From IMG/VR virus record IMGVR_UViG_3300045136_000054, positions 28,873-92,872 of that record: a stretch of 64,000 nt of DNA, one strand, 5' to 3'. Shown here piece by piece: positions 7,491-51,283 of this stretch (positions within the stretch are counted from its first letter, which is position 1; each line of letters starts with the position of its first letter). The translations under genes and the position numbers were made by a program. Below the pieces are notes generated by a model that was given only the letters and a program-made list of their open reading frames with translations, had not been told where the DNA came from and ran no database searches. This DNA is from a virus.

Positions 7491-8196
7491 CCTATATAAT
7501 TATAAATAGCATATAAAAGGAGGGTAGATATTATGCTATTATGTAATTTTTGTTATAAAGAATGTAAGAATTCTAATTCACTAAAAAATCATGAGAGACG
7601 TTGTAAAAATAATCCTAATAGACAAGTACCAAGACCAAGTGATAAATGGTATGAAAGTATGCATTCTAGAAAAGGACATGGTTCTAATCAATTCACAAAA
7701 GCTAAAGAAACTGGAATTCCTGTTTTCATTAGTGATGAATCAAGAGCAAAGATGGGTAAAAGTGGAAAAAATAGAATATGGACAAAAGCTCTTAGAGAAC
7801 AACATTCTAGGGCAATGAAGTTGGCTGTTAAAAATAATCCAGAATCATACACATCTTCTAATAGAGGAAGAGCAAAACAAATAACAAAATATGGTTTAAA
7901 ATTTATTGGAAAATGGGAACTTGAGTTTTATGAATATTGCTTAAATAAATCTATAATTATAGAAAGGTGTTTTAATTCATTTGAATATGAATGGAATGGA
8001 ATTAGACAGTACTATCCAGATTTTTATTTACCACAATTGGATGTATTTATTGAGGTTAAAGGATACGAAACAGACAGAGATAGAGCAAAATGGCAACAAT
8101 TTCCAAGAAAATTAATAGTTATTAAGAAAAAAGAAATCGCCGAAATACGAAATGGAACATATGCGGGTTTGCAATTTAATGATAAAATACCGAACT
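7491..8196 (+). mobile_element. Homing-endonuclease insertion in tRNA-Met
   Basis: Inserted between U33 and C34 of the tRNA, with a 3-base ACT ambiguity at the junctions. No group I P7/P3 signature was seen. A CTCCT...AGGAG hairpin precedes the ORF and includes its ribosome-binding site. Confidence 0.65.
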
Positions 8197-8201
8197 CATA
8201 A
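7533..8201 (+). CDS. Homing endonuclease: zinc finger, NUMOD-like region, PD-(D/E)XK nuclease
   Basis: 222 residues. An N-terminal Cys2-His-Cys finger (CNFCYKEC...HERRC) is followed by a basic NUMOD3-like segment (about residues 70-95). The C-terminal nuclease domain carries YYPDFYLPQLDVFIEVKGY, the D-x(n)-E-x-K core of PD-(D/E)XK enzymes. It should cut an uninterrupted tRNA-Met gene in related phages so that repair copies the insert across. RBS GGAGGG lies just upstream. Its TAA stop (8199-8201) is supplied by the tRNA anticodon loop, so gene and target are fused at the base level. Confidence 0.8.
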   Translation: MLLCNFCYKECKNSNSLKNHERRCKNNPNRQVPRPSDKWYESMHSRKGHGSNQFTKAKETGIPVFISDESRAKMGKSGKNRIWTKALREQHSRAMKLAVKNNPESYTSSNRGRAKQITKYGLKFIGKWELEFYEYCLNKSIIIERCFNSFEYEWNGIRQYYPDFYLPQLDVFIEVKGYETDRDRAKWQQFPRKLIVIKKKEIAEIRNGTYAGLQFNDKIPNS

Positions 8202-12324: not shown

Positions 12325-13401
12325 ATGAAAATTTATTCTGTTGGTGGAGCCGTTAGAGATAAACTTCTAGGTTTTGATTCCAAAGATCGCGATTGGGTTA
12401 TTGTTGGTGCTACTGAACAAGATATTTTAACTCTTGAATCCCAAGGTTATACTCGTGTTGATACTGACTTTCCAGTTTATCTTCACCCTGAAACTAAAGA
12501 AGAATATGCTCTAGCTAGGCGAGAGCGAAAAAATGGGATAGGTTATAATGGATTTTCTTGGTCAACTGAAAATGTGTCACTTGAAGAAGACCTATCTAGG
12601 CGTGATCTTACGATCAATGCTATGGCTATCTGTCCTAATACCGGTGAGATTATTGACCCATTTGGTGGTCAAAAAGATCTAAAAGATGGTATTCTTAGAC
12701 ATGTATCAGCAGCATTTGCTGAAGATCCTTTACGTGTACTTAGAGTTGCACGATTTGCTGCTCGTTATGGATTCAGTGTAGATCCTGATACTATGTCTCT
12801 AATGTCACGTATGGTGACAATGGGTGAACTTGATCATCTAACACCTGAAAGAGTTTGGAAAGAATTAGAAAAACTACTTCTTGAAAATGATATGATTTGG
12901 GGACTTGAAATTCTTGACCAATGTGGTGCTCTTAATCGACTTTTTGGATTTGAATTATTAGACACTGATAAAAAATTACTAGATAAAGCGATGTTAACAG
13001 ATGCACCTATTGAATCACTTTGTACTGTTCTTTTTAGAAACTGTGATATCAATAAACTAGAAACGATTATAAAATTTCCATCTTCTGTTAAAGAAACAAT
13101 AGAACTTTATCAAAAATATCATGATTTTATTATTGTTTTTGATAGACTTTTATCAAAAGAAAAAATTGATATTCTTAAAAATATAGGTGCTTTAAGGCAA
13201 TCATTAACTTTTAAATATTTAATGATTGCCTGCGCTATAACATCTTCTTTTAGAGATGCTATGATAGATATTGAACAATCGATTATACTTTTAAAAAATA
13301 TCAATTATGAAAAGCTTCTTAAGAATGTTCCAAATTCAGAAAAAGCTAAAGTTGTATTTAATAAACAGTTAACTATATTGGAAAATAAATATGTTATTTG
13401 A
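12325..13401 (+). CDS. cca: CCA-adding tRNA nucleotidyltransferase (class II)
   Basis: 358 residues. Catalyses addition or repair of the 3'-terminal CCA of tRNA. The head domain shows GGAVRD (7-12), the metal-binding Asp pair in DSKDRDW, a RRERK segment and [10 protein letters not shown]. The neck has [17 protein letters not shown]. Length is a little short compared with bacterial enzymes, and a C-terminal HD domain is not obvious. It fits the large tRNA gene set here, because a few tRNAs (21558, 31535) lack an encoded CCA. The overlap with the next ORF suggests an operon. Confidence 0.93.
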
Positions 13402-26441: not shown

Positions 26442-27683
26442 ATGATTCTTATGGCATACAAGTATCGGTTATATCCAACCAAAGAACAAGAGCAGTTCTT
26501 GTTGCAGAACTTTGGTGCAGTTCGTTTTGTCTGGAATCAACTGGTAGCTAACTTCAATTCTTGGTCTAAAGATGGACCAAACCAAACGGTCACAGAAAAG
26601 ACCTTGAAAGATGATCCCAGATATCCTTGGTTGAACGAAGCCATCAGCTATGCACTTCAGCAAAAGCGAATGGACTTTGATGAAACCAAAAAGCAATTCT
26701 TCAACAAGAAACGAGCAGTTAAACTTGGGCGAATGAAGTTCAAACGTAAAGGTAAATCACGAGATTCATTCAAAATTCCCGCGGCATCATTGGGTGGAAT
26801 GAAGGCGTTTGATTTAAATGCTGGAACAATCAAGCTCACAAAAATGACACCAATGAAAATGGTTGTTGATCGAAAGTTCCGTGGAGCGCCCAAATCAGTA
26901 ACAGTTTCGAAAAACAAAGCAAACCAGTATTTTGTAAGCGTTCTGGTGGAAGAAGCAAAACCAGAACCTTTACCAAATACCTATCGTGCTGTAGGTATTG
27001 ATCTTGGGTTGAAAGATTTGGCTGTTCTCAGTGACGGTCACAAACTAGCAAATCCAAGGTGGTTTAGAGAAAGCCAATCTAAACTAAAAAGAGCACAACA
27101 GCATTTGAGTCGGAAGCAAAAAGGTAGCAATCGCCGCAAGCAGCAACAGTTGAAGGTCAATCGCATATATTTGAAAATTTCTAATCAGCGAGAACACCTA
27201 CAACATGAGTTTTCTAAATGGCTTGTCAAGAATTATGACTACATCTATCTTGAGGATCTAGCTATCCAAGGTATGATGCAGTCTAAGAACAAGACTCGAA
27301 ACAAGAACATTGCGGATGCGAGTTGGTCTTCATTGGTATCTAAAATTGAGTACAAAGCAAATTGGTATGGCAAGGAATTTGCCAAGGTTGATCGCTACTT
27401 TGCTTCTAGTCAAATTTGTTCTACTTGTGGTCATCATGATGGTAAAAAATCGCTTGATGCCCGTCGTTGGACATGTCCCGTCTGTGGTGTAGTGCATGAT
27501 CGAGACTTGAATGCTGCTAAGAACATCGAACAAGAAGCCTCTAGAGATCTTGTCAATTGGATTAAAAGAGGTGCAAGAGAATTAAACTCGGCCGAATCAG
27601 TCGAGAACAGACACAGAGAGGTCATAAGTCCAGTGGTCGGTACGACATTGGCTGCTTCGTTGAAGTGTCCAGTGGTTTTATAG
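26442..27683 (+). mobile_element. tnpB: IS200/IS605-family TnpB element without TnpA
   Basis: Encodes a 413-residue TnpB, an RNA-guided nuclease ancestral to Cas12. The N-terminal helix-turn-helix is YKYRLYPTKEQEQFL. The RuvC residues are present: Asp in GIDLGLKDLA (about 187), Glu in YLEDLAIQ (about 271) and Asp in HDRDLNAAKN (about 352). A four-Cys zinc finger (CSTCG...CPVCG, 326-345) is intact, so it looks active. No tnpA lies nearby. Its GC content is visibly higher than that of flanking genes, indicating transfer. A hairpin near its 3' end (27630-27651) is where the omega RNA would be expected. Confidence 0.9.
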
Positions 27684-27711: not shown

Positions 27712-27939
27712 AATAGGAGAAAAGATGGATTTCAATACACTTAAACAAAAACTTCAAAAAAAATATTCAACAAAATTTCAAGATCAATTTTCAGAAGAAA
27801 TATGGCAAACAACATACAAAGATTAAATAGGAGAAAAGATGGATTTCAATACACTTAAACAAAAACTTCAAAAAAAATATTCAACAAAATTTCAAGATCA
27901 ATTTTCAGAAGAAATATGGCAAACAACATACAAAGATTA
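27712..27939 (+). repeat. Perfect 114-bp tandem duplication of the nrdJ start
   Basis: Copy 1 is 27712-27825 and copy 2 is 27826-27939, identical, including RBS and first codons of nrdJ. Copy 1 yields a 33-codon ORF (27725-27826) ending TAA at the junction. Copy 2 continues into the full gene. The duplication starts 28 bases after tnpB, which suggests a link to the insertion event or its repair. Confidence 0.92.
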
Positions 27940-29176
27940 TAATGATAAAACAATAGATGATACTCTTTTTAGAGTCGCAAAAACAATAGCATCAGCAGAA
28001 GAAACTGAAGAAAAGCGTATCGAGTGGACCGAAAAATTTTATGATATGCTTAGTGAATTTAAAGTTACTGCTGGTGGTAGAATTTATGCAAATGCTGGGA
28101 CAGAATGGAAAGGTACAACATTTATTAATTGCTTTGTTGCACCTAGAGCAAATAATGATATAGACTCATTAAGTAATATTATTAAAACATTAAATGATCA
28201 AGCACAAACACTCAAAAGTGAGGGTGGATGGGGAGAAAATTTTAGTTGGATAAGACCGCGTGGTGCTTTTATTTATGGGATTGGCGTTGAAACGCCAGGT
28301 GCTGTAAAATATATGGAATTATTTGATAAATCATCTGATATTATTACTTCTGGTTCAGGTAAAAAATCAACACATGTAAAAGCGAAAGGTAAAATTAGAA
28401 AGGGCGCGATGATGGCAGTATTAGATGTTTGGCACCCTGATATTATAGAATTTATTACAGCAAAACAATCATCAGGAAGATTGACAAAATTTAATATGTC
28501 AGTAAATTGTTCAGATGAATTTATGTCAAAGGTTATAAAAGCATTAGAATTACAAAAACAAATTGATTCATTATCAGATGATGATGAAAATAAACAAATT
28601 TTAATTAAAGAAAAAGAAGAAATTGATAAATGGAATTTACGTTTCCCAGACACAAGTCATCCAAAATATAAAAAAGAATGGAAAGGTGACATTAAGCAAT
28701 GGGAATCAGCTGGGTATCCAACAATAGTGTATCAAACAGTATCAGCAACTTGGCTATGGAATTTAATTATGGAATCAACATATAATCGCGCAGAGCCAGG
28801 TGTTTTATTTTTAGATCGTGCAAATTATTTTAATCCATTAAATTATGCTGAAACAATTTATTCGACAAATCCATGTTTAACTGGTGATACTTTAGTCACG
28901 ACAGATAAGGGTGAAATATCATTTTTTGAGTTGGCCAAAAGGTTTAAATCTGGTGAAAGCTTCAAAGTATTAACAATGAATATTGACACACAAAATACAG
29001 AATTTGAAGATATAACTTTTGTCGACAAAACACGTAATAATGCTAATGTTATCGAATTAGAATTAGAAGATTCTACAGTCATTAAATTAACACCAGATCA
29101 TAAAGTCTATACTGAAAATCGTGGGTATGTTAATGCATCTGACTTAACAACAGACGATATTTTAATAGGTATTTAA
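27839..29176 (+). CDS. nrdJ: Class II ribonucleotide reductase, N-terminal part fused to split-intein N fragment
   Basis: 445 residues. Residues 1-345 are the N-extein of an adenosylcobalamin-dependent reductase (INCFVAP, SEGGWGENFSW, FLDRANYFNPLN), ending IYSTNP. From residue 346 (base 28874) a 100-residue intein N fragment begins CLTGDTLV and includes block B TPDHKVYTENRGY. It ends at a stop, so ligation must occur in trans with the product starting at 29292. Splicing restores the conserved NPCGE motif. The sequence resembles the NrdJ-1 split intein as I remember it. Confidence 0.92.
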   Translation: MDFNTLKQKLQKKYSTKFQDQFSEEIWQTTYKDYNDKTIDDTLFRVAKTIASAEETEEKRIEWTEKFYDMLSEFKVTAGGRIYANAGTEWKGTTFINCFVAPRANNDIDSLSNIIKTLNDQAQTLKSEGGWGENFSWIRPRGAFIYGIGVETPGAVKYMELFDKSSDIITSGSGKKSTHVKAKGKIRKGAMMAVLDVWHPDIIEFITAKQSSGRLTKFNMSVNCSDEFMSKVIKALELQKQIDSLSDDDENKQILIKEKEEIDKWNLRFPDTSHPKYKKEWKGDIKQWESAGYPTIVYQTVSATWLWNLIMESTYNRAEPGVLFLDRANYFNPLNYAETIYSTNPCLTGDTLVTTDKGEISFFELAKRFKSGESFKVLTMNIDTQNTEFEDITFVDKTRNNANVIELELEDSTVIKLTPDHKVYTENRGYVNASDLTTDDILIGI

Positions 29177-29205
29177 AATGTCACATAGGTTTATAACTTC
29201 CATAG

Positions 29206-29322
29206 ATGTTAAAAAAAGAACAAGATATACCAATTATTATAATTGACAACATTAATGATTATTGTGAAAGTTACAAAAAGGAAAAAGCTATATGGAAACA
29301 AACAACAACCTCCGCAAATTAA
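29206..29322 (+). other. Gap between the two nrdJ halves, with a 38-codon ORF
   Basis: Bases 29177-29291 separate the halves. A small ORF from ATG 29206 overlaps the start of the C-half. It may be what is left of a homing-endonuclease gene, as seen more clearly in the second split intein at 47502. No clear similarity can be read. Confidence 0.3.
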
Positions 29323-31010
29323 AAATTAAATCTATAAAAATAACTGAAAATCAAGATGTTTTTGATTTAACTACTACCAAAAATCATAATTTTTTTGCAA
29401 ATGGAATTTTAGTTCATAATTGTGGTGAACAAATGTTGGCTCCAGGTGGTATTTGTTGTTTATCTTCATTAAATTTAACTCAATTTATTAATGAAGATTG
29501 TACAGATTTTGATTATAAAAAAATAGCAAAATATACAGGTTATCTTGTTCGTTTCTTAGATAATGTTAATACTTTATCTAATGCACCACTTCCTGAATAT
29601 GAATATTCAATGAAAAATAAGCGTCGCATTGGTATTGGTATTCTTGGTTGGGCATCATCATTATTTATGTTGAAAATAAAATTTGGTTCTGATAAATCAC
29701 ATGAATTGCGTGAAAAGGTTATGTCTACCATAGCTAGAAGTGCATATATGTCATCTATTGATTTAGCAGAAGAAAAAGGAATGTTTAAATTATGTGACCC
29801 ACAAAAACATTCTGAAAATCCATTTATTCAATCATTAGGTCTATCAAAATCATATATGGAAAAATTAAAAACTGTTGGAATTAGGAATAGTTCATTATTA
29901 TCGATACAACCAACAGGAAATACTTCTATATTAGCAAATGTTGTATCTAGTGGATTAGAACCAATATTTATGCCAGAATATATAAGAACGGTTATTGTTC
30001 CATCTATTCCAGAAGATATGATTGAAGAAACACCTAAATGGTACGATGGTGAGTGGCATGAAACAAAAATTTTTAAATTCACAAAAGAAGGTGATGAAGA
30101 AATTCTTAAAGGAAAACATAATGGTATAGTTTATAAAATCGATAAAAATAGAGGATTGACTAAAGAGGTTACGTGTTCTGATTATGGTGTTAGATATTTA
30201 AAAGAAAAAAATGAATGGAATCCAAAAGCACCATGGGCTGTTACTGCATTGAATGGATTGACTGTTGAAGATCATGTTAATGATTTAGTTGGATTTGCAA
30301 GATGGGTTGACAGTGCTATGTCAAAAACTGTCAATGTTCCACATGAATATCCATTTGATGATTTTAAAAATGTTTATTTAGATGTTTATAAATCTGGATA
30401 TGTTAAAGGTGTAACAACATACAGAACAGGTACAATGACAGCTGTACTATCTTCAAAAGAAACAGATAAAAATGGTTATGATGAGGAAATTATTTTAGAT
30501 GATGTAATTCTTCCAGAAACTGCAGAAGCATCAATGAAAACTTTACGTGCTGAAGGAAGAAAATGGTATCTAACTGTTGTTTGGAATGAAACACGCACTA
30601 GACCATTTGCATTATTTGTTCATACAAATCATCATGAAAAAAATGTTATAACATTAGATGCTATTGATAAATTGACAGAATTAGCAAAAAGAAAAAATAT
30701 TAAACAAGAGCATATAGATAAAGTGTTAGAAAAAATTAAATCAAATGATAATGCTTCTAAAATTGCTAGAATGATTTCTTTAAATCTTAGACATGGAGTA
30801 TTAATCAAAAATATTGTTGCAACACTTGATAGCATTAAAGATGTTTATGTTGGAAGTTTTATTTTCCAGATTAAAAAATTTCTAGCATCATTTATTAAAG
30901 ATGGTGAAATAGTTGAAGGTGCAAAATGTACAGAATGTGGAAGTGAAAAGGTTGTATATCAAGAAGGATGTCATAAATGTATGCAATGTGGTTCTAGTAA
31001 ATGTGGATAA
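29292..31010 (+). CDS. nrdJ: Split-intein C fragment fused to class II ribonucleotide reductase C-terminal part
   Basis: 572 residues. The first 43 are the intein C fragment ending HNFFANGILVHN (catalytic C-terminal Asn). The C-extein then starts with Cys (CGEQMLAPGG). It carries the rest of the reductase barrel and ends in a Cys-rich tail (CTECGSEKV...CMQCGSSKCG) typical of NrdJ re-reduction. Class II needs vitamin B12 and no NrdB, and no nrdB is seen here. Supplies deoxynucleotides for phage replication. Confidence 0.92.
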   Translation: METNNNLRKLKIKSIKITENQDVFDLTTTKNHNFFANGILVHNCGEQMLAPGGICCLSSLNLTQFINEDCTDFDYKKIAKYTGYLVRFLDNVNTLSNAPLPEYEYSMKNKRRIGIGILGWASSLFMLKIKFGSDKSHELREKVMSTIARSAYMSSIDLAEEKGMFKLCDPQKHSENPFIQSLGLSKSYMEKLKTVGIRNSSLLSIQPTGNTSILANVVSSGLEPIFMPEYIRTVIVPSIPEDMIEETPKWYDGEWHETKIFKFTKEGDEEILKGKHNGIVYKIDKNRGLTKEVTCSDYGVRYLKEKNEWNPKAPWAVTALNGLTVEDHVNDLVGFARWVDSAMSKTVNVPHEYPFDDFKNVYLDVYKSGYVKGVTTYRTGTMTAVLSSKETDKNGYDEEIILDDVILPETAEASMKTLRAEGRKWYLTVVWNETRTRPFALFVHTNHHEKNVITLDAIDKLTELAKRKNIKQEHIDKVLEKIKSNDNASKIARMISLNLRHGVLIKNIVATLDSIKDVYVGSFIFQIKKFLASFIKDGEIVEGAKCTECGSEKVVYQEGCHKCMQCGSSKCG

Positions 31011-32623: not shown

Positions 32624-33820
32624 ATGAGATTTGTAATAACAGGTATTGGTATCCATGATTCATTAGGATCTGATCCCAGTGAATGTTTTAATAATATTAT
32701 TACAAATAATCAAAACTTAACATCCACGTCTAATATAGACTCATTAAAAAATAAAAACATAAAAACAAAATTCTGTTTTTTAGAAAAACAAATAGTTCCA
32801 GATTTAACAAAATATGGATATACTGAAAAAGAGTTAAGAAGATTAACTAATAATTCTAAAATTGCTTTAGGTGTTGTTGAACATGCTATTAAAGATGCAA
32901 ACATAAATATTCACGGTAAAGAAGTTCCAGTTGTTTTTAGTTCTTCTACAAGAAATATAGCATTAGATTATTTAGATTATATTAATAATACCTTTGGGCG
33001 ATTAAATCCTTTCATAGCATTAAATTATAGTTCAGATTTTATTTCAAATTGTATACAAACTAGATATAATTTAACAGGTCAGTCTTTAACATTATCTGCT
33101 GCATGTTCAACGGGTTTTTATAGTATAGATTATGCTTTGAAGATAATGAGTGAAAATAATCTTCAATGTACTATAGTTGGAACATCAAGTAATGGTTGTA
33201 ACTATTTAGATATTACATGGTTTGAAAATTTAGGTGCATTATCTAAAAAAGAAATATCTAGACCATTTGATAAAAATAGAGATGGTTTTATGATTGCTAA
33301 TGGACATGCATGTTTAATTATAGAAACATTAGAACATGCTGAAAAAAGAAATGCTAAAATTTATGCAGAAATTATTGGTTTAGGTTTTCAAAATGATGGA
33401 AATAATTTAACAGCACCAGATAAAGAAATGAAAAGTTCAAGAATTGCTTTAGAAAGATGTTTGAAAAATTTTAATGGACAAATAGATTATATAAATGCAC
33501 ATGCAACATCTACTCCAGTTGGTGATGATATAGAAGCTAGTTTAATGGAAAAATATTTTCCAGGTGTATCAATAAGTAGTAATAAAGGACATATAGGACA
33601 TTGTATTCATTCATCAAACATTGTTGAATTAATATATACTATTATGGCTATGAAACATTCATTAATCCCACATACGATGAACTTAAACGACCCATTAGAC
33701 GCTAACCTAGATTTCGTAATGCATAAACCTAAAGAAAAACAGATTAGATATGCTCTCAAAAATTCATTTGGATTCGGTGGTAGGAATGGATTTATATTAT
33801 TAAAAAATTGCATGTTATAA
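32624..33820 (+). CDS. Beta-ketoacyl synthase (KAS I/II type)
   Basis: 398 residues, full length for FabB/FabF. The catalytic Cys lies at residue 161 in SAACSTGF. The first catalytic His is in NAHATSTPVGD, and the Lys/His pair is in SSNKGHIGHC. The C-terminal NSFGFGGRNG loop is also typical. Condenses acyl-ACP with malonyl-ACP. Together with the MaoC-like protein (11858) it suggests phage-directed acyl-chain or polyketide-like synthesis, perhaps for envelope lipids or modification of a virion part. Confidence 0.92.
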   Translation: MRFVITGIGIHDSLGSDPSECFNNIITNNQNLTSTSNIDSLKNKNIKTKFCFLEKQIVPDLTKYGYTEKELRRLTNNSKIALGVVEHAIKDANINIHGKEVPVVFSSSTRNIALDYLDYINNTFGRLNPFIALNYSSDFISNCIQTRYNLTGQSLTLSAACSTGFYSIDYALKIMSENNLQCTIVGTSSNGCNYLDITWFENLGALSKKEISRPFDKNRDGFMIANGHACLIIETLEHAEKRNAKIYAEIIGLGFQNDGNNLTAPDKEMKSSRIALERCLKNFNGQIDYINAHATSTPVGDDIEASLMEKYFPGVSISSNKGHIGHCIHSSNIVELIYTIMAMKHSLIPHTMNLNDPLDANLDFVMHKPKEKQIRYALKNSFGFGGRNGFILLKNCML

Positions 33821-40780: not shown

Positions 40781-40855
40781 GCCCTTATAGTTAAATTAGC
40801 ATAATAGCGGATTCGTAACCCGCAGTTACTAGTGCAATTCTAGTTGGGGGCACCA
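40781..40855 (+). tRNA. tRNA-Thr(CGT)
   Basis: Acceptor GCCCTTA/TGGGGGC, anticodon arm GCGGA-TTCGTAA-CCCGC (one A-C mismatch), T-arm ACTAG-TGCAATT-CTAGT with G55, encoded ACCA. Confidence 0.83.
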
Positions 40856-40870
40856 TATAGGAGAATTGTT

Positions 40871-41278
40871 ATGACTTGGGTAAAATATAAAGGAATGATG
40901 ATTTATAATCCTAAACGCCCAGAAATTAAAAAGACACGACGAGAAGAAGAATGGTGGTTAATTTGTGAAGTTGATTATGGTCTAGCAGCATTTTATAGAT
41001 ATTTAGTATTTAAAAGATTTGGTTTAAGACTACAACCAACTGCATGGAAACCACATATTACAATTTTAGATGGTAGAAAAGCCGTTAAACCAGAATTTAG
41101 AAAATTTTGGAAAAAATATGATAGACAAAAGATAGATTTTGAATATTCTGTAAATGTTGAGCAACATTGGAAATTTTGGGTATTACCAGTTAGATCTAAA
41201 AAATTAGAAGAAATAAGAAAAGAATTAGGATTTATTGGTAACTATCCATTTCACATAACTTTTGGAAGGATGTTATAA
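40871..41278 (+). CDS. 2H phosphoesterase-like protein, 135 aa
   Basis: Start chosen at ATG 40871 (RBS TAGGAG). Two H-x-T motifs, KPHITILDG (about 67-75) and FHITFGR near the C-terminus, are the signature of the 2H superfamily, which opens 2'-5' or cyclic phosphodiester bonds. Candidate roles are RNA end repair together with the phage RNA ligase, or cleavage of a cyclic-nucleotide defence signal as done by Acb1-type anti-CBASS proteins. Sequence alone does not decide. Follows tRNA-Thr by 15 bases. Confidence 0.72.
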   Translation: MTWVKYKGMMIYNPKRPEIKKTRREEEWWLICEVDYGLAAFYRYLVFKRFGLRLQPTAWKPHITILDGRKAVKPEFRKFWKKYDRQKIDFEYSVNVEQHWKFWVLPVRSKKLEEIRKELGFIGNYPFHITFGRML

Positions 41279-46682: not shown

Positions 46683-47501
46683 ATGAGTACTTTTTCTGTT
46701 AAAGTACGTAAAATAGAAATATTGCCACATCCAAATGCTGATGCTTTAGAATTAGCTAAAGTTGATGATTATCATTGTGTGGTAAAAAAAGGTCAATATA
46801 AAACTGGTGATCTTGTTGTATATATTCCAGAAGCTGCTATCGTTCCAGAATGGATTTTGAAAAAATATGGATTTTGGAATGAAAAAGAAAATAAAGGAAT
46901 GCTTGCTGGATCAAAAGGTGATAGAGTTAAAGCAATAAAGCTTAGGGGTGAGTTGTCACTTGGTATTGTTATTCCAGTGAGTGCATTGAATAATTCAGAT
47001 TTACATGTAGAAGGAGTTGATGTTGCTGAGGAATTGGGCATTGTTAAGTATGAACCGCCAATTCCTGTTCATATGGCAGGAGAAGTATTTAATGCAGGTA
47101 CGCGTTTGACAGTAAATTATGACATTGAAAATATTAAAGCGTGGCCAGATGTTTTTGAAGATGGTGAAGATGTTGTAGTTACAGAAAAAATTCATGGCTG
47201 TGCTGATTATGATACAATAATTGATACATTAGAATTTGGTCCTATTAAAATTGGGCAGGTTTGCGATAAAAAGATATTTTGTCACGTAAAAGCTTTTGAT
47301 ATAACTACTAATGAAGTTGTTTATGAAAAAATTAATGGACATTCTATATTCCCAAATGATAAACAATGGTATGAAATTGAAACTGAAGATGGACAGATTA
47401 TTAAATTAACAGAAAATCATTTAGTTTGGTTACCTAAATTAAATTGTTATAGAGAAGTTAAATTCTTGACAGAAAATGATGAATTTTTATTATATTCTTA
47501 A
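46683..47501 (+). CDS. RNA ligase (Rnl5/DraRnl type), N-terminal part fused to split-intein N fragment
   Basis: 272 residues. Residues 1-172 are the N-terminal OB-like region of the DraRnl family (KVRKIEILPHPNADALELAK) through nucleotidyltransferase motif I EKIHG, with the AMP-accepting Lys. From Cys 173 (base 47199) a 100-residue intein N fragment follows, with block B TENHLVW. The split falls directly after motif I, so the ligase cannot work until trans-splicing with the product at 47660. RNA ligases repair cut tRNAs and nicked RNA. Confidence 0.9.
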   Translation: MSTFSVKVRKIEILPHPNADALELAKVDDYHCVVKKGQYKTGDLVVYIPEAAIVPEWILKKYGFWNEKENKGMLAGSKGDRVKAIKLRGELSLGIVIPVSALNNSDLHVEGVDVAEELGIVKYEPPIPVHMAGEVFNAGTRLTVNYDIENIKAWPDVFEDGEDVVVTEKIHGCADYDTIIDTLEFGPIKIGQVCDKKIFCHVKAFDITTNEVVYEKINGHSIFPNDKQWYEIETEDGQIIKLTENHLVWLPKLNCYREVKFLTENDEFLLYS

Positions 47502-47651
47502 AATGCGAAAGTTAAAGACATTTGGAATAGAGATAAAATAAAAATTAATTTAGCAGAACAACAAGGATATAATGTTTCAGTACTATGGGAAAATGACATA
47601 AGAAAGAATTTTGATAATGTTAAAAATAGAATTATTAATTTTTTATTATAG
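47502..47651 (+). pseudogene. Remnant of a Vsr-like (EDxHD-type) homing endonuclease between intein halves
   Basis: In frame with the N-half, directly after its stop, 49 codons read ...RDKIKINLAEQQGYNVSVLW and a basic tail to TAG. This is the typical C-terminal region of Vsr/EDxHD nucleases. The catalytic N-terminal part is gone. Fits the known fractured-gene arrangement in which such a nuclease lies between split-intein halves. Confidence 0.65.
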
Positions 47652-47659
47652 GAAATAAA

Positions 47660-48367
47660 ATGAAAACGGTTAAAATTAAATCTATCAAAAAAATTGAAAA
47701 TACTTCAATGCGTTATGATATAGAAGTTAATAATGTTAATAATTTTTTTGCTAATAATATATTAGTCCATAATTCGTTTTGTGGTATTACTTTTGTTCCT
47801 GAAAAAGATGGAACTGATGATATGATTGATGGCCGTATCCTTGTATATAGCAAAGGTCTCGGAAGTAAAGGTTTGTGTTTTAAAAATAATGAAAAAAACA
47901 AGGATAATATTTATATTAGAACGTTGAGAAGTATGGGAATAATTGATATTGTATTAAACACGTTTAAAAACGTGGAACTTGAAGAACCTATTCATATATT
48001 GGGTGAAATATATGGTCCGGGAGTCCAAGATTTGACATATGGAGAAAAAATTTCATTTAGAATTTTTGATATTGCTAGGGGATATAGACAAAATATTAAA
48101 TTTACTGATTTTGAAACATTAACAGAAATGAAAGATAAATTAAAATTAGAAATGGTTCCAATATTATTTGTTGGCCCATATTCAAAAGATACTGTTATGA
48201 AATATACTGTTGGAAAAGAAACAGTATCCGGAAAAGCTAAACATATTCGTGAAGGTGTTGTTGTTAAACCTAAAAATGAAAGAAATCACCCGCAATTAGG
48301 AAGAGTTATTCTTAAGAGTGTTAGTGAAGATTATTTAACACGTAAAGGTGGAACTGAATTCAATTAA
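47660..48367 (+). CDS. Split-intein C fragment fused to RNA ligase C-terminal part
   Basis: 235 residues. The first 38 form the intein C fragment ending NNFFANNILVHN. Ser 39 starts the C-extein SFCGITF, restoring KIHGS. Motifs III-V of the ligase follow (ILGEIYGPGVQDLTYG, GVVVKPKN, VILKSVSEDYL). RBS AGGAAAT. Confidence 0.9.
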   Translation: MKTVKIKSIKKIENTSMRYDIEVNNVNNFFANNILVHNSFCGITFVPEKDGTDDMIDGRILVYSKGLGSKGLCFKNNEKNKDNIYIRTLRSMGIIDIVLNTFKNVELEEPIHILGEIYGPGVQDLTYGEKISFRIFDIARGYRQNIKFTDFETLTEMKDKLKLEMVPILFVGPYSKDTVMKYTVGKETVSGKAKHIREGVVVKPKNERNHPQLGRVILKSVSEDYLTRKGGTEFN

Positions 48368-48387: not shown

Positions 48388-48681
48388 ATGAATAAATGTC
48401 CATTATGTCATCGTGAGTTGGGTGAAATAAATATTGATCAACACCATTTGATCCCAAAAACATTTAAGGGTAAAGATGCTGAAAAAATCCATAAAATATG
48501 TCACCAAAAAATTCATTCAACATTTACAGAACGCGAATTGTTAAATTATTATCATACATGGGAAAGATTAAGAGAACACCCGGAAATAGAAAAATTTATT
48601 AAGTGGGTTTCCAAACGTAGTATAGATTTTTTTGATATTTCAAAAGACACAAATGAAAGAAGTAAAAAAAGGAAAAGATAA
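48388..48681 (+). CDS. HNH nuclease-like protein, 97 aa
   Basis: Two Cys pairs and an HNH core: CPLCHREL, DQHHLIPKTFKG, KICHQKIHSTF. A basic C-terminus. Small free-standing HNH proteins in phages act in DNA packaging or as homing nucleases. Lies 20 bases after the ligase. Confidence 0.75.
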   Translation: MNKCPLCHRELGEINIDQHHLIPKTFKGKDAEKIHKICHQKIHSTFTERELLNYYHTWERLREHPEIEKFIKWVSKRSIDFFDISKDTNERSKKRKR

Positions 48682-49141: not shown

Positions 49142-51283
49142 ATGTCAGAAGAAATATGCACATCTTCAAAAATAGTTGAAGATGAAATACTAAAATTATA
49201 TATAAAAAATCAAGAATTATTAGACATTTCTTGTGATTGGTATTGGGAACAAGATGAAAATCTTGTTTTTACTTATCTATCTGATAAATTTTTTCTTATT
49301 ACTGGTTTTGATAAAGAGGATTTTTTAGGCAAAAAAATATGTGAAATAGAATCTTTTGGATTTGAAGATATAAATGTGTTAAATGAATATAAAGATAAAA
49401 TAAATAAAAGATTACCGTTTCACGGATTTATATATTCTTTTAAAGACAAATATAATAGAACATATTGGTTTGAATTAAATGGTGTTCCAATTATAGATGA
49501 TTTAGGTATTTTTAATGGATACCGTGGAACAGGCAAAAACATAACAAATTATAAACTTTTATCGGAAAAAGTATTTAAACAAGAAAAACAAATTAATTAT
49601 GCATTGGCAGCACTTAAATATAGTTCTCATGGAATAATGATATGTGATGACGATATTAAAATAACATTTGTAAATCAGATGTTTAGTAATATAACAGGAT
49701 ATTCAATAGATGAAGTTTTAGGTAAAAAACCTAATATATTATCATCAGGAATTCATAATCCAGATTTTTATAAAAATATGTGGAATTCAATTTTAAATAC
49801 TGGTACGTGGAAAGGTGAAATATGGAATAAGAAAAAGACTGGTGAAATATACCCAGAACATCTTATAATATCAACAGTCAAAGATGATAATAATGAAATA
49901 ATTGGTTATATTGGTGAATTTTCAGATATAACAGAATTAAAAATAAAAGAAGAAAAAATAAATTTTTTAGCACATCATGATGTTTTGACAGGACTAGGAA
50001 ATAGGGAATTATTAAATGTAAAAATAAATGATCTATTTGCTGAAGCTAGATCTAATAATAAAAAAATAGCATTATTTTATTTAGATCTAGATAGATTTAA
50101 ATTAATCAATGATACATATGGTCATTCAACTGGAGATATTTTATTAAAAAATGTAGCTAAAATATTAAAATCAACAGTAAGAGAAAATGATCTTATTATT
50201 AGATTAGGTGGTGATGAGTTTGTTATAGTAATACATAATATATGTGATATTAAATATGTAGAGCGTATAGCAATTAAAATTCTAAATAGTTTAGAAAATC
50301 CTATAGAATTAAATGGTGGAACTAAAAAAATTAATATATCAGCATCTATAGGAATAAGCGTTTATCCAGATGATTCAACAAATATAAATGAATTATTAGA
50401 ATGTGCAGATGCAGCAATGTATTATGCTAAAGAATCTGGTAGAAATAATTTTCAATTTTATAAAGAAGAAATAGATGCTAGAGTTGAATATAGAGTTAAG
50501 ATAGAAAATGGTATTAGACGTGCTCTAGGGTATGATGAACTTCATTTATTTTATCAACCTATTATTTCAATAAGTACTAATAAAATTGTTGGTGTAGAGG
50601 CCTTATTAAGATGGGAAGATAGAAGAAATAATGCTATTATAACACCGAATTTATTTATTCATATTGTTGAAGATGCTGGAATGATTCATAAATTAACAAA
50701 TTTTGTTATAGATAGATGTATAAGAGATATAAAATTAATTCAAGATAAAGTAGATATATCTAATTTATATTTTTCTATGAATTTTTCTGCAAAGGATTTA
50801 AATGAAGAAACTGTTACAAAATTAAAAAATAAAATAATAAAAGAAAACATTGACCCAACAAAACTATGTATAGAAATAACAGAATCAATGCTTATCAATA
50901 ATATTGATTCAGCATCTAATAATATTGAAAAAATTAAAAATAGTGGAATAAAAATAGCTTTAGATGATTTTGGAACAGGTTATTCAAGTTTACACTATCT
51001 AGCAAAATTTAAAATAGATATTTTGAAAATAGATAAATCTTTTGTTGATAATATATTAATAAGTGATAAGTCACAAAATATTATAACTATGGTAAAAGAT
51101 TTAGCTGGTCGTATGAATATTTCTGTTACTGCTGAAGGAGTAGAAACATATGAACAGTTAGATAAACTTAAAGAAATAGGATGTCACAATTATCAGGGTT
51201 ACCTTGTATCTAGACCTATTCGTTTGGAAGAACTTGTTGAATTCATTAAAGACAATTATAATAAAACCAAACATATTTTATAA
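49142..51283 (+). CDS. PAS-PAS-GGDEF-EAL cyclic-di-GMP protein
   Basis: 713 residues without signal peptide. Two PAS domains (about 25-135 and 150-275) come before a GGDEF domain with intact RLGGDEF (about 356), then an EAL domain with VGVEALLRW (about 485), ITESML, DDFGTGYSS and TAEGVET motifs. Both the cyclase and phosphodiesterase active sites look intact. It could set host c-di-GMP level and thus motility, biofilm or surface structures. A very unusual gene for a phage. Monocistronic between terminators. Confidence 0.95.
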   Translation: MSEEICTSSKIVEDEILKLYIKNQELLDISCDWYWEQDENLVFTYLSDKFFLITGFDKEDFLGKKICEIESFGFEDINVLNEYKDKINKRLPFHGFIYSFKDKYNRTYWFELNGVPIIDDLGIFNGYRGTGKNITNYKLLSEKVFKQEKQINYALAALKYSSHGIMICDDDIKITFVNQMFSNITGYSIDEVLGKKPNILSSGIHNPDFYKNMWNSILNTGTWKGEIWNKKKTGEIYPEHLIISTVKDDNNEIIGYIGEFSDITELKIKEEKINFLAHHDVLTGLGNRELLNVKINDLFAEARSNNKKIALFYLDLDRFKLINDTYGHSTGDILLKNVAKILKSTVRENDLIIRLGGDEFVIVIHNICDIKYVERIAIKILNSLENPIELNGGTKKINISASIGISVYPDDSTNINELLECADAAMYYAKESGRNNFQFYKEEIDARVEYRVKIENGIRRALGYDELHLFYQPIISISTNKIVGVEALLRWEDRRNNAIITPNLFIHIVEDAGMIHKLTNFVIDRCIRDIKLIQDKVDISNLYFSMNFSAKDLNEETVTKLKNKIIKENIDPTKLCIEITESMLINNIDSASNNIEKIKNSGIKIALDDFGTGYSSLHYLAKFKIDILKIDKSFVDNILISDKSQNIITMVKDLAGRMNISVTAEGVETYEQLDKLKEIGCHNYQGYLVSRPIRLEELVEFIKDNYNKTKHIL

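What the first reader, a model, noticed from the sequence alone, without database searches (positions are those of the whole stretch)
46683..48367. Second split intein, placed directly after the RNA ligase active-site motif, with a nuclease remnant in the gap
Insertion after EKIHG disables adenylation until splicing. The gap keeps 49 codons of a Vsr/EDxHD-like C-terminus. It shows the path from intein with endonuclease gene to a bare split gene. Two split inteins in 18 kb suggests a genome prone to this arrangement.
Basis: partly seen in the sequence, partly recalled or inferred. Interest (0 to 1): 0.74.

Follow-up and report, generated by a model that had tools for sequence, protein, structure and literature searches.

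The report
Split intein inside phage RNA ligase
A virus from environmental DNA cuts its RNA-repair enzyme in two at the catalytic site with a self-removing protein element, keeps only the tail of the DNA-cutting gene that once spread it, and belongs to a large, apparently undescribed lineage of such elements that sit at the same catalytic motif in at least five different kinds of DNA and RNA ligase.

Summary
Window 46683-47501 encodes the N-half of a DRB0094-type RNA ligase ending at motif I (EKIHG) plus a 100-aa N-intein. 47660-48367 encodes a 38-aa C-intein plus the C-half (Ser+1). The 158-bp gap holds 49 codons homologous to the C-terminus of EDxHD/Vsr-like homing nucleases (52.7 bits; best of 1000 shuffles 9.1), with the catalytic region gone. 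Relatives settle the reading: L167 and L037 have the same intein at the same site of orthologous ligases with the complete nuclease in the gap, and other loci show graded erosion, usually keeping only the nuclease's 3' end. The larger result lies beyond the finding: 66 of 67 distinct relatives sit in polynucleotide ligases, 59 directly after motif I (KxxG|S/T/C), in at least five ligase families, most split around an EDxHD nuclease. Inteins are ~55% identical between ligase families whose exteins share ~25%, so the element has jumped between families at the catalytic site. The split-intein-plus-EDxHD arrangement is known; this ligase lineage appears undescribed in the papers I could search. 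"A genome prone to splitting" is not supported: the 184-kb record holds two inteins, of different lineages. Splicing, ligase activity and homing are inferred.

The parts
46683..47198 (+). N-terminal half of a DRB0094-type RNA ligase (172 aa): OB-fold domain PF21189, ending in motif I EKIHG (47184-47198) with the presumed adenylated lysine
   Evidence: TIGR02306 1.1e-49; PF21189 8.6e-18; phrog_968 3.9e-33
47199..47501 (+). N-intein, 100 aa (Cys1 ... KLTENH ... FLLYS) and its TAA stop (47499-47501)
   Evidence: TIGR01445 3.3e-6, Hint PF01079 0.00024; alignments A1 and A6
47502..47651 (+). 49-codon remnant of the C-terminus of an EDxHD/Vsr-like homing nuclease, in frame with IntN after the stop; its own stop is TAG 47649-47651; no ATG/GTG/TTG start; the catalytic E, D and H region is absent
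   Evidence: phrog_22677 1.6e-7; 3.9e-16 to the model of intact gap nucleases; shuffle test; alignment A7
47650..47659 (+). AGGA (47650-47653), a likely ribosome-binding site for the C-half that overlaps the stop codon of the remnant, and spacer
   Evidence: sequence; role inferred
47660..47773 (+). C-intein, 38 aa, ending ILVHN
   Evidence: TIGR01443 0.00058; PF14890 1.2e-5; alignment A2
47774..48367 (+). C-terminal half of the RNA ligase, starting with Ser+1 (SFCGITF), with motifs III (GEIYG), IV (EGVVVKP) and V (KSVS), and stop
   Evidence: PF09414 5e-16; phrog_548 2.5e-16; TIGR02306 6.8e-31 for the C-half

Best explanation
The locus is a functional 'fractured' RNA ligase gene. Two polypeptides, ligase-N+IntN and IntC+ligase-C, are made separately. 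IntN and IntC associate, splice in trans through Cys1, the terminal Asn and Ser+1, and leave an intact ligase with an uninterrupted motif I (EKIHG-SFCG). The element belongs to a lineage of split inteins that homes into the nucleotidyltransferase motif-I codons of phage polynucleotide ligases with the help of an EDxHD nuclease encoded between the halves. In this virus a deletion has removed all of the nuclease except its last ~49 codons, so the intein is no longer mobile by itself and is kept because the ligase needs splicing. The 3' end of the nuclease gene survives because it abuts or overlaps the translation start of the C-half. Shown by sequence: parts, site, homologies, loss of the catalytic region, graded erosion in relatives, transfer between ligase families. 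Inferred: splicing, ligase activity, homing, and the reason for 3'-end retention.
For: Intein and ligase matches and intact catalytic residues. Remnant significance. Complete nuclease at the same site in orthologous ligases: L037 EKIHG|SFC and L167 EKLHG|SFC. Intein-free orthologues with an uninterrupted motif I (L002, L004 and others). The AlphaFold model of the L167 nuclease has I-Bth0305I (3R3P) and Vsr as best PDB matches, prob 1.00; Vsr and DUF559 Pfam hits in relatives. 59 of 67 relative clusters lie directly after KxxG; extein families. Intein 54-56% vs extein 23-25% identity between the window and Rnl1-type loci. dN/dS 0.31 (N-extein) and 0.26 (IntN) against L015, dS about 1.3. No other copy of the nuclease in the 184-kb record. 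IntC start overlaps or lies within 15 nt of the nuclease stop in 35 of 40 loci, by a crude start choice.
Against: No splicing, ligase or homing assay. dS is near saturation, so dN/dS is only indicative. No intein of this lineage has been tested to splice, as far as I could find. The identical second record may be the same sample. The remnant is longer than a ribosome-binding site needs, so its persistence may be mere recency.
Confidence: 0.85

Rival explanations
1. The ligase gene is a pseudogene broken by a dead element: the halves no longer splice.
For: The nuclease is destroyed, so decay of the locus is under way; no assay exists.
Against: 272 and 235 codons are open with all splicing residues and ligase motifs III, IV and V in place; dN/dS about 0.3; likely ribosome-binding sites precede both halves.
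Confidence: 0.07
2. The 49-codon remnant is still a working part, for example a leader that couples translation of the C-half to the N-half, rather than a passenger of deletion.
For: Truncated loci (window, L035, L042, L082, L178, L183, L195) keep the 3' end; window and L178 keep nearly the same model positions (~252-309 and 253-309); the nuclease stop usually overlaps the C-half start.
Against: L178 has a stop inside the remnant, the short tails differ in frame and length, and L172, L174 and L079 have short gaps without a detectable tail, so no particular sequence seems needed. The window remnant has no start codon of its own.
Confidence: 0.12
3. The gap sequence is chance similarity or a different short gene.
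For: It is only 49 codons and AT-rich.
Against: 52.7 bits vs a maximum of 9.1 in 1000 shuffles; same place and orientation as the intact nuclease in relatives.
Confidence: 0.01

Closest known systems
'Fractured genes': natural split inteins with a free-standing EDxHD nuclease between the halves (Dassa et al. 2009, doi 10.1093/nar/gkp095; full text not held, content from memory)
   Same: Gene split by IntN/IntC halves with a Vsr-like nuclease gene between them; phage hosts; trans-splicing
   Different: Those I recall are in gp41 helicase, NrdA/NrdJ, IMPDH and similar genes, not ligases; here the nuclease is reduced to its tail
Aeromonas phage Aes123 and Tenacibaculum phage PTm1 split DNA polymerases with a VSR endonuclease (JN377899, AP019524)
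   Same: Annotated N-intein, VSR endonuclease and C-intein in a row; nuclease homologous to those of the ligase inteins
   Different: DNA polymerase host gene; intact nuclease; different intein sequence
NrdJ-1 split intein (PDB 8UBS)
   Same: Nearest solved intein to the family profile (3.6e-11); similar IntN length
   Different: Ribonucleotide reductase host; different lineage
I-Bth0305I (3R3P) and E. coli Vsr
   Same: Best fold matches of the intact gap nuclease of L167
   Different: I-Bth0305I sits in a group I intron (from memory); the window holds only the catalytically empty tail
Intein in ATP-dependent DNA ligase I of one haloarchaeon (PMC4071816)
   Same: An intein in a ligase gene
   Different: Archaeal; whether it is split and where in the ligase it sits was not checked here

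Membership tests
Natural split intein | IntN and IntC on two separate reading frames, each fused to an extein half | tested here: met
Natural split intein | Conserved blocks A, B (TxxH), F, G with Cys1, Asn and C/S/T+1 | tested here: met
Natural split intein | Trans-splicing activity | not testable with these tools
   needs co-expression
Fractured gene with EDxHD nuclease (Dassa type) | Nuclease gene between the intein halves | tested here: inconclusive
   present in the window only as a C-terminal remnant; complete in L167, L037 and most relatives
EDxHD homing endonuclease (window remnant itself) | Catalytic E, D, H region | tested here: not met
   absent from the 49 codons; the alignment begins after the catalytic segment
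EDxHD homing endonuclease (gap gene of relatives) | Vsr/I-Bth0305I fold and family match | tested here: met
   3R3P and 1CW0 best hits, prob 1.00, E 1.4e-3 and 1.5e-3; Vsr PF03852 in 4 of 15
DRB0094-type (Rnl5-like) RNA ligase | N-terminal OB domain plus nucleotidyltransferase motifs I-V across the two halves | tested here: met
   TIGR02306 N-half 169 bits (cutoff 151), C-half 107 bits; PF21189 and PF09414
DRB0094-type (Rnl5-like) RNA ligase | Ligase activity | not testable with these tools
   needs assay of the spliced protein

The most novel reading that the evidence does not exclude
A single mobile split-intein lineage is specialised on the catalytic-lysine motif of covalent nucleotidyltransferases. 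With its EDxHD nuclease it has repeatedly jumped between non-orthologous DNA and RNA ligase families (DRB0094, T4 Rnl1-type, phrog_24030, ATP-dependent DNA ligase, NAD-dependent DNA ligase) at the codons for KxDG|S/T/C, so the homing system follows an active-site motif rather than a gene.
Probability: 0.6. Interest if true: 0.75.

Novelty: new variant of a known kind. Interest (0 to 1): 0.62.

Why it matters
Inteins are usually tied to one site of one gene family. Here one lineage occupies the same catalytic motif in at least five ligase families, which makes it testable how a homing nuclease crosses between paralogous genes and whether the amino-acid motif, rather than a DNA string, sets the target range. 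The erosion series (complete nuclease, N-truncated, C-tail only, bare, and one cis mini-intein at equivalent sites) gives intermediates between mobile and domesticated split inteins. Ligases that should not work before splicing, and many new natural split inteins with Ser, Thr or Cys at +1, could also be useful tools.

Tried and rejected
NrdJ gap (29177-29291) as a second remnant of the same nuclease: no signal (-0.4 bits, 733 of 1000 shuffles as good). Stops inside L068, L075 and L056 nucleases, first read as decay: all TAG (Q) in L068/L075 and TGA (W) in L056, so those are recoded genomes with open nucleases. Intact copy of the nuclease elsewhere in the 184-kb record: none. Isolated phages: no ligase intein of this lineage at E<=0.01; the hits whose context I read are helicase, terminase, topoisomerase, DnaX and ATPase inteins. 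Cellular genomes: one weak hit only (L166). Literature: no paper found that describes split inteins in phage ligases; Dassa 2009 is not held. Sequence search of the PDB with the L037 nuclease: nothing; the fold search was needed. DNA-level target conservation: only bases fixed by the KxxG amino acids are conserved, wobble positions are not. Promoter scan: no informative excess. Sampling caution: the alignment seeds were ligase inteins, so the share of ligase hosts among relatives is biased upward; the breadth across ligase families is not.

Full report
What was claimed and what is there. The sequence agrees to the codon. The N-half ORF 46683-47501 carries the OB-fold and motif I EKIHG of a DRB0094-type ligase, then a 100-aa N-intein and TAA. 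The C-half ORF 47660-48367 carries a 38-aa C-intein, Ser+1, and the rest of the ligase. Splicing residues (Cys1, TxxH, block F, ILVHN, Ser+1) and ligase motifs III-V are intact.

The gap. Frame 47502-47648 is open for 49 codons directly after the IntN stop, without a start codon of its own. It hits phrog_22677 at positions 304-347 of 353 (1.6e-7). A 312-position model built from 28 intact gap nucleases of other viruses matches it at ~252-309 with 3.9e-16; 1000 dinucleotide shuffles of the gap reach at most 9.1 bits against 52.7. The alignment shows that the segment with the E, D and H of the active site is missing, while the downstream DIWxxD...GYxVxxLWExDI segment is kept. The nuclease is therefore dead, and no second copy exists in the 184-kb record of the same virus.

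Relatives decide the reading. IntN and IntC searches of viral contigs brought 89 IntN loci in 67 clusters at 90% IntN identity. L037 (EKIHG|SFC) and L167 (EKLHG|SFC; intein 58%, extein 47% identical to the window) are orthologous ligases with the intein at the same bond and a complete nuclease in the gap. L015 has the same intein at the same bond, but its contig ends inside IntN.

Erosion series. Of 67 clusters, 48 have a near-full-length nuclease match (at least 250 of 312 model positions; stops were read through in this scan), four of them on the opposite strand (L064, L069, L078, L086). L085 is frameshifted, and L048 is frameshifted beside an intact near-copy. Eight are truncated (window, L035, L042, L045, L082, L178, L183, L195); L079, L172, L174 and L198 show no nuclease; L059 is a contiguous mini-intein; the rest are cut by contig ends, and L084 is a LAGLIDADG helicase intein outside the lineage. 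Seven of the eight truncated gaps keep the 3' end of the nuclease gene; L045 keeps a middle part. For L035, L082, L183 and L195 the tails are short and individually weaker (7.7 and 12.7 bits for L035 and L082, 0 of 1000 shuffles as high). The nuclease stop overlaps or lies within 15 nt of the IntC start in 35 of 40 loci by a crude choice of start codon, which would explain why deletions stop there. In the window the AGGA before the C-half overlaps the remnant's stop codon. This last step is inference.

The nuclease family. The L167 nuclease, modelled from an alignment of 15 sequences (pLDDT 86, pTM 0.47), has the I-Bth0305I catalytic domain and Vsr as best PDB matches (E 1.4e-3 and 1.5e-3, probability 1.00). 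Relatives hit Vsr, DUF559 and DUF7487 in Pfam. The same nuclease type lies between intein halves of split DNA polymerases in Aeromonas phage Aes123 and Tenacibaculum phage PTm1, so the arrangement itself is known.

The unexpected part. The host genes of this lineage are ligases: C-halves match PHROGs of DRB0094-type RNA ligase, T4 Rnl1-type RNA ligase, phrog_24030 RNA ligase, ATP-dependent DNA ligase and NAD-dependent DNA ligase. In 59 of 67 clusters Cys1 follows K-x-x-G directly; three lie two residues later, four at an upstream site of DRB0094 ligases, and one is the helicase outlier. The +1 residue is Ser, Cys or Thr in all 53 scored (25, 22, 6; the scoring pattern required one of these three), the residue that the motif itself offers. 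Window and Rnl1-type inteins are 54-56% identical (L040, L053, L044) while the exteins share 23-25%; the inteins of DRB0094 orthologues are hardly closer (50-58%) although the exteins share 44-52%. On the intein tree the ligase inteins form one side of a branch against five other split inteins (99/95) and the host-family labels need close to the fewest possible changes. So the element moved between ligase families a few times and then stayed with each. At the DNA level only the bases fixed by the amino-acid motif are conserved, so how the nuclease finds the site across families is open.

Limits. Seeds were ligase inteins, searches were pattern-based and capped, so the lineage's true host range may be wider. 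The outgroup set is small and the inner tree is poorly resolved. Splicing, ligase activity and homing are not shown. dN/dS of 0.26-0.31 against L015 is from near-saturated dS. The literature search covered open-licence papers only.

Verdict. Observation confirmed; interpretation right for the locus, wrong for 'genome prone'. As an item it is a new member of the fractured split inteins with a decayed nuclease. As a family it is a new variant: split inteins bound to the ligase active-site motif across gene families.

Noticed in passing
window 27839-29176 and 29292-31010: First split intein, in an NrdJ-type ribonucleotide reductase; 115-bp gap without trace of the EDxHD nuclease; it groups with other Nrd inteins.
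   Followed up: partly
L064, L069, L078, L086: In four ligase split inteins the gap nuclease is on the opposite strand to the ligase halves.
   Followed up: partly
L056, L068, L075: Recoded phages: TGA read as Trp in L056, TAG as Gln in L068 and L075, seen from conserved positions of the gap nuclease.
   Followed up: partly
L059 4695-6254: A contiguous mini-intein of the same lineage in an Rnl1-type ligase, at the same motif-I site.
   Followed up: partly
window 48388-48681: Small HNH protein next to the ligase, weakly like HlpB (57 bits, below the cutoff of 130).
   Followed up: no
window 49142-51283: PAS-GGDEF-EAL protein (713 aa), a cyclic-di-GMP type enzyme in a phage genome.
   Followed up: no
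window 3816-40855: A tmRNA and 32 tRNA genes predicted by ARAGORN, with a CCA-adding-type enzyme at 12325-13401 and a weak 2H phosphoesterase at 40844-41278; fits an RNA-repair setting for the ligase.
   Followed up: no
window 7533-8201: Protein that reads like a zinc-finger plus NUMOD-like plus restriction-fold nuclease (DFYLPQLDVFIEVKG); no Pfam hit.
   Followed up: no
window 26442-27683 and 32624-33820: IS605-type OrfB/TnpB protein upstream of the split NrdJ gene, and a beta-ketoacyl synthase gene.
   Followed up: no
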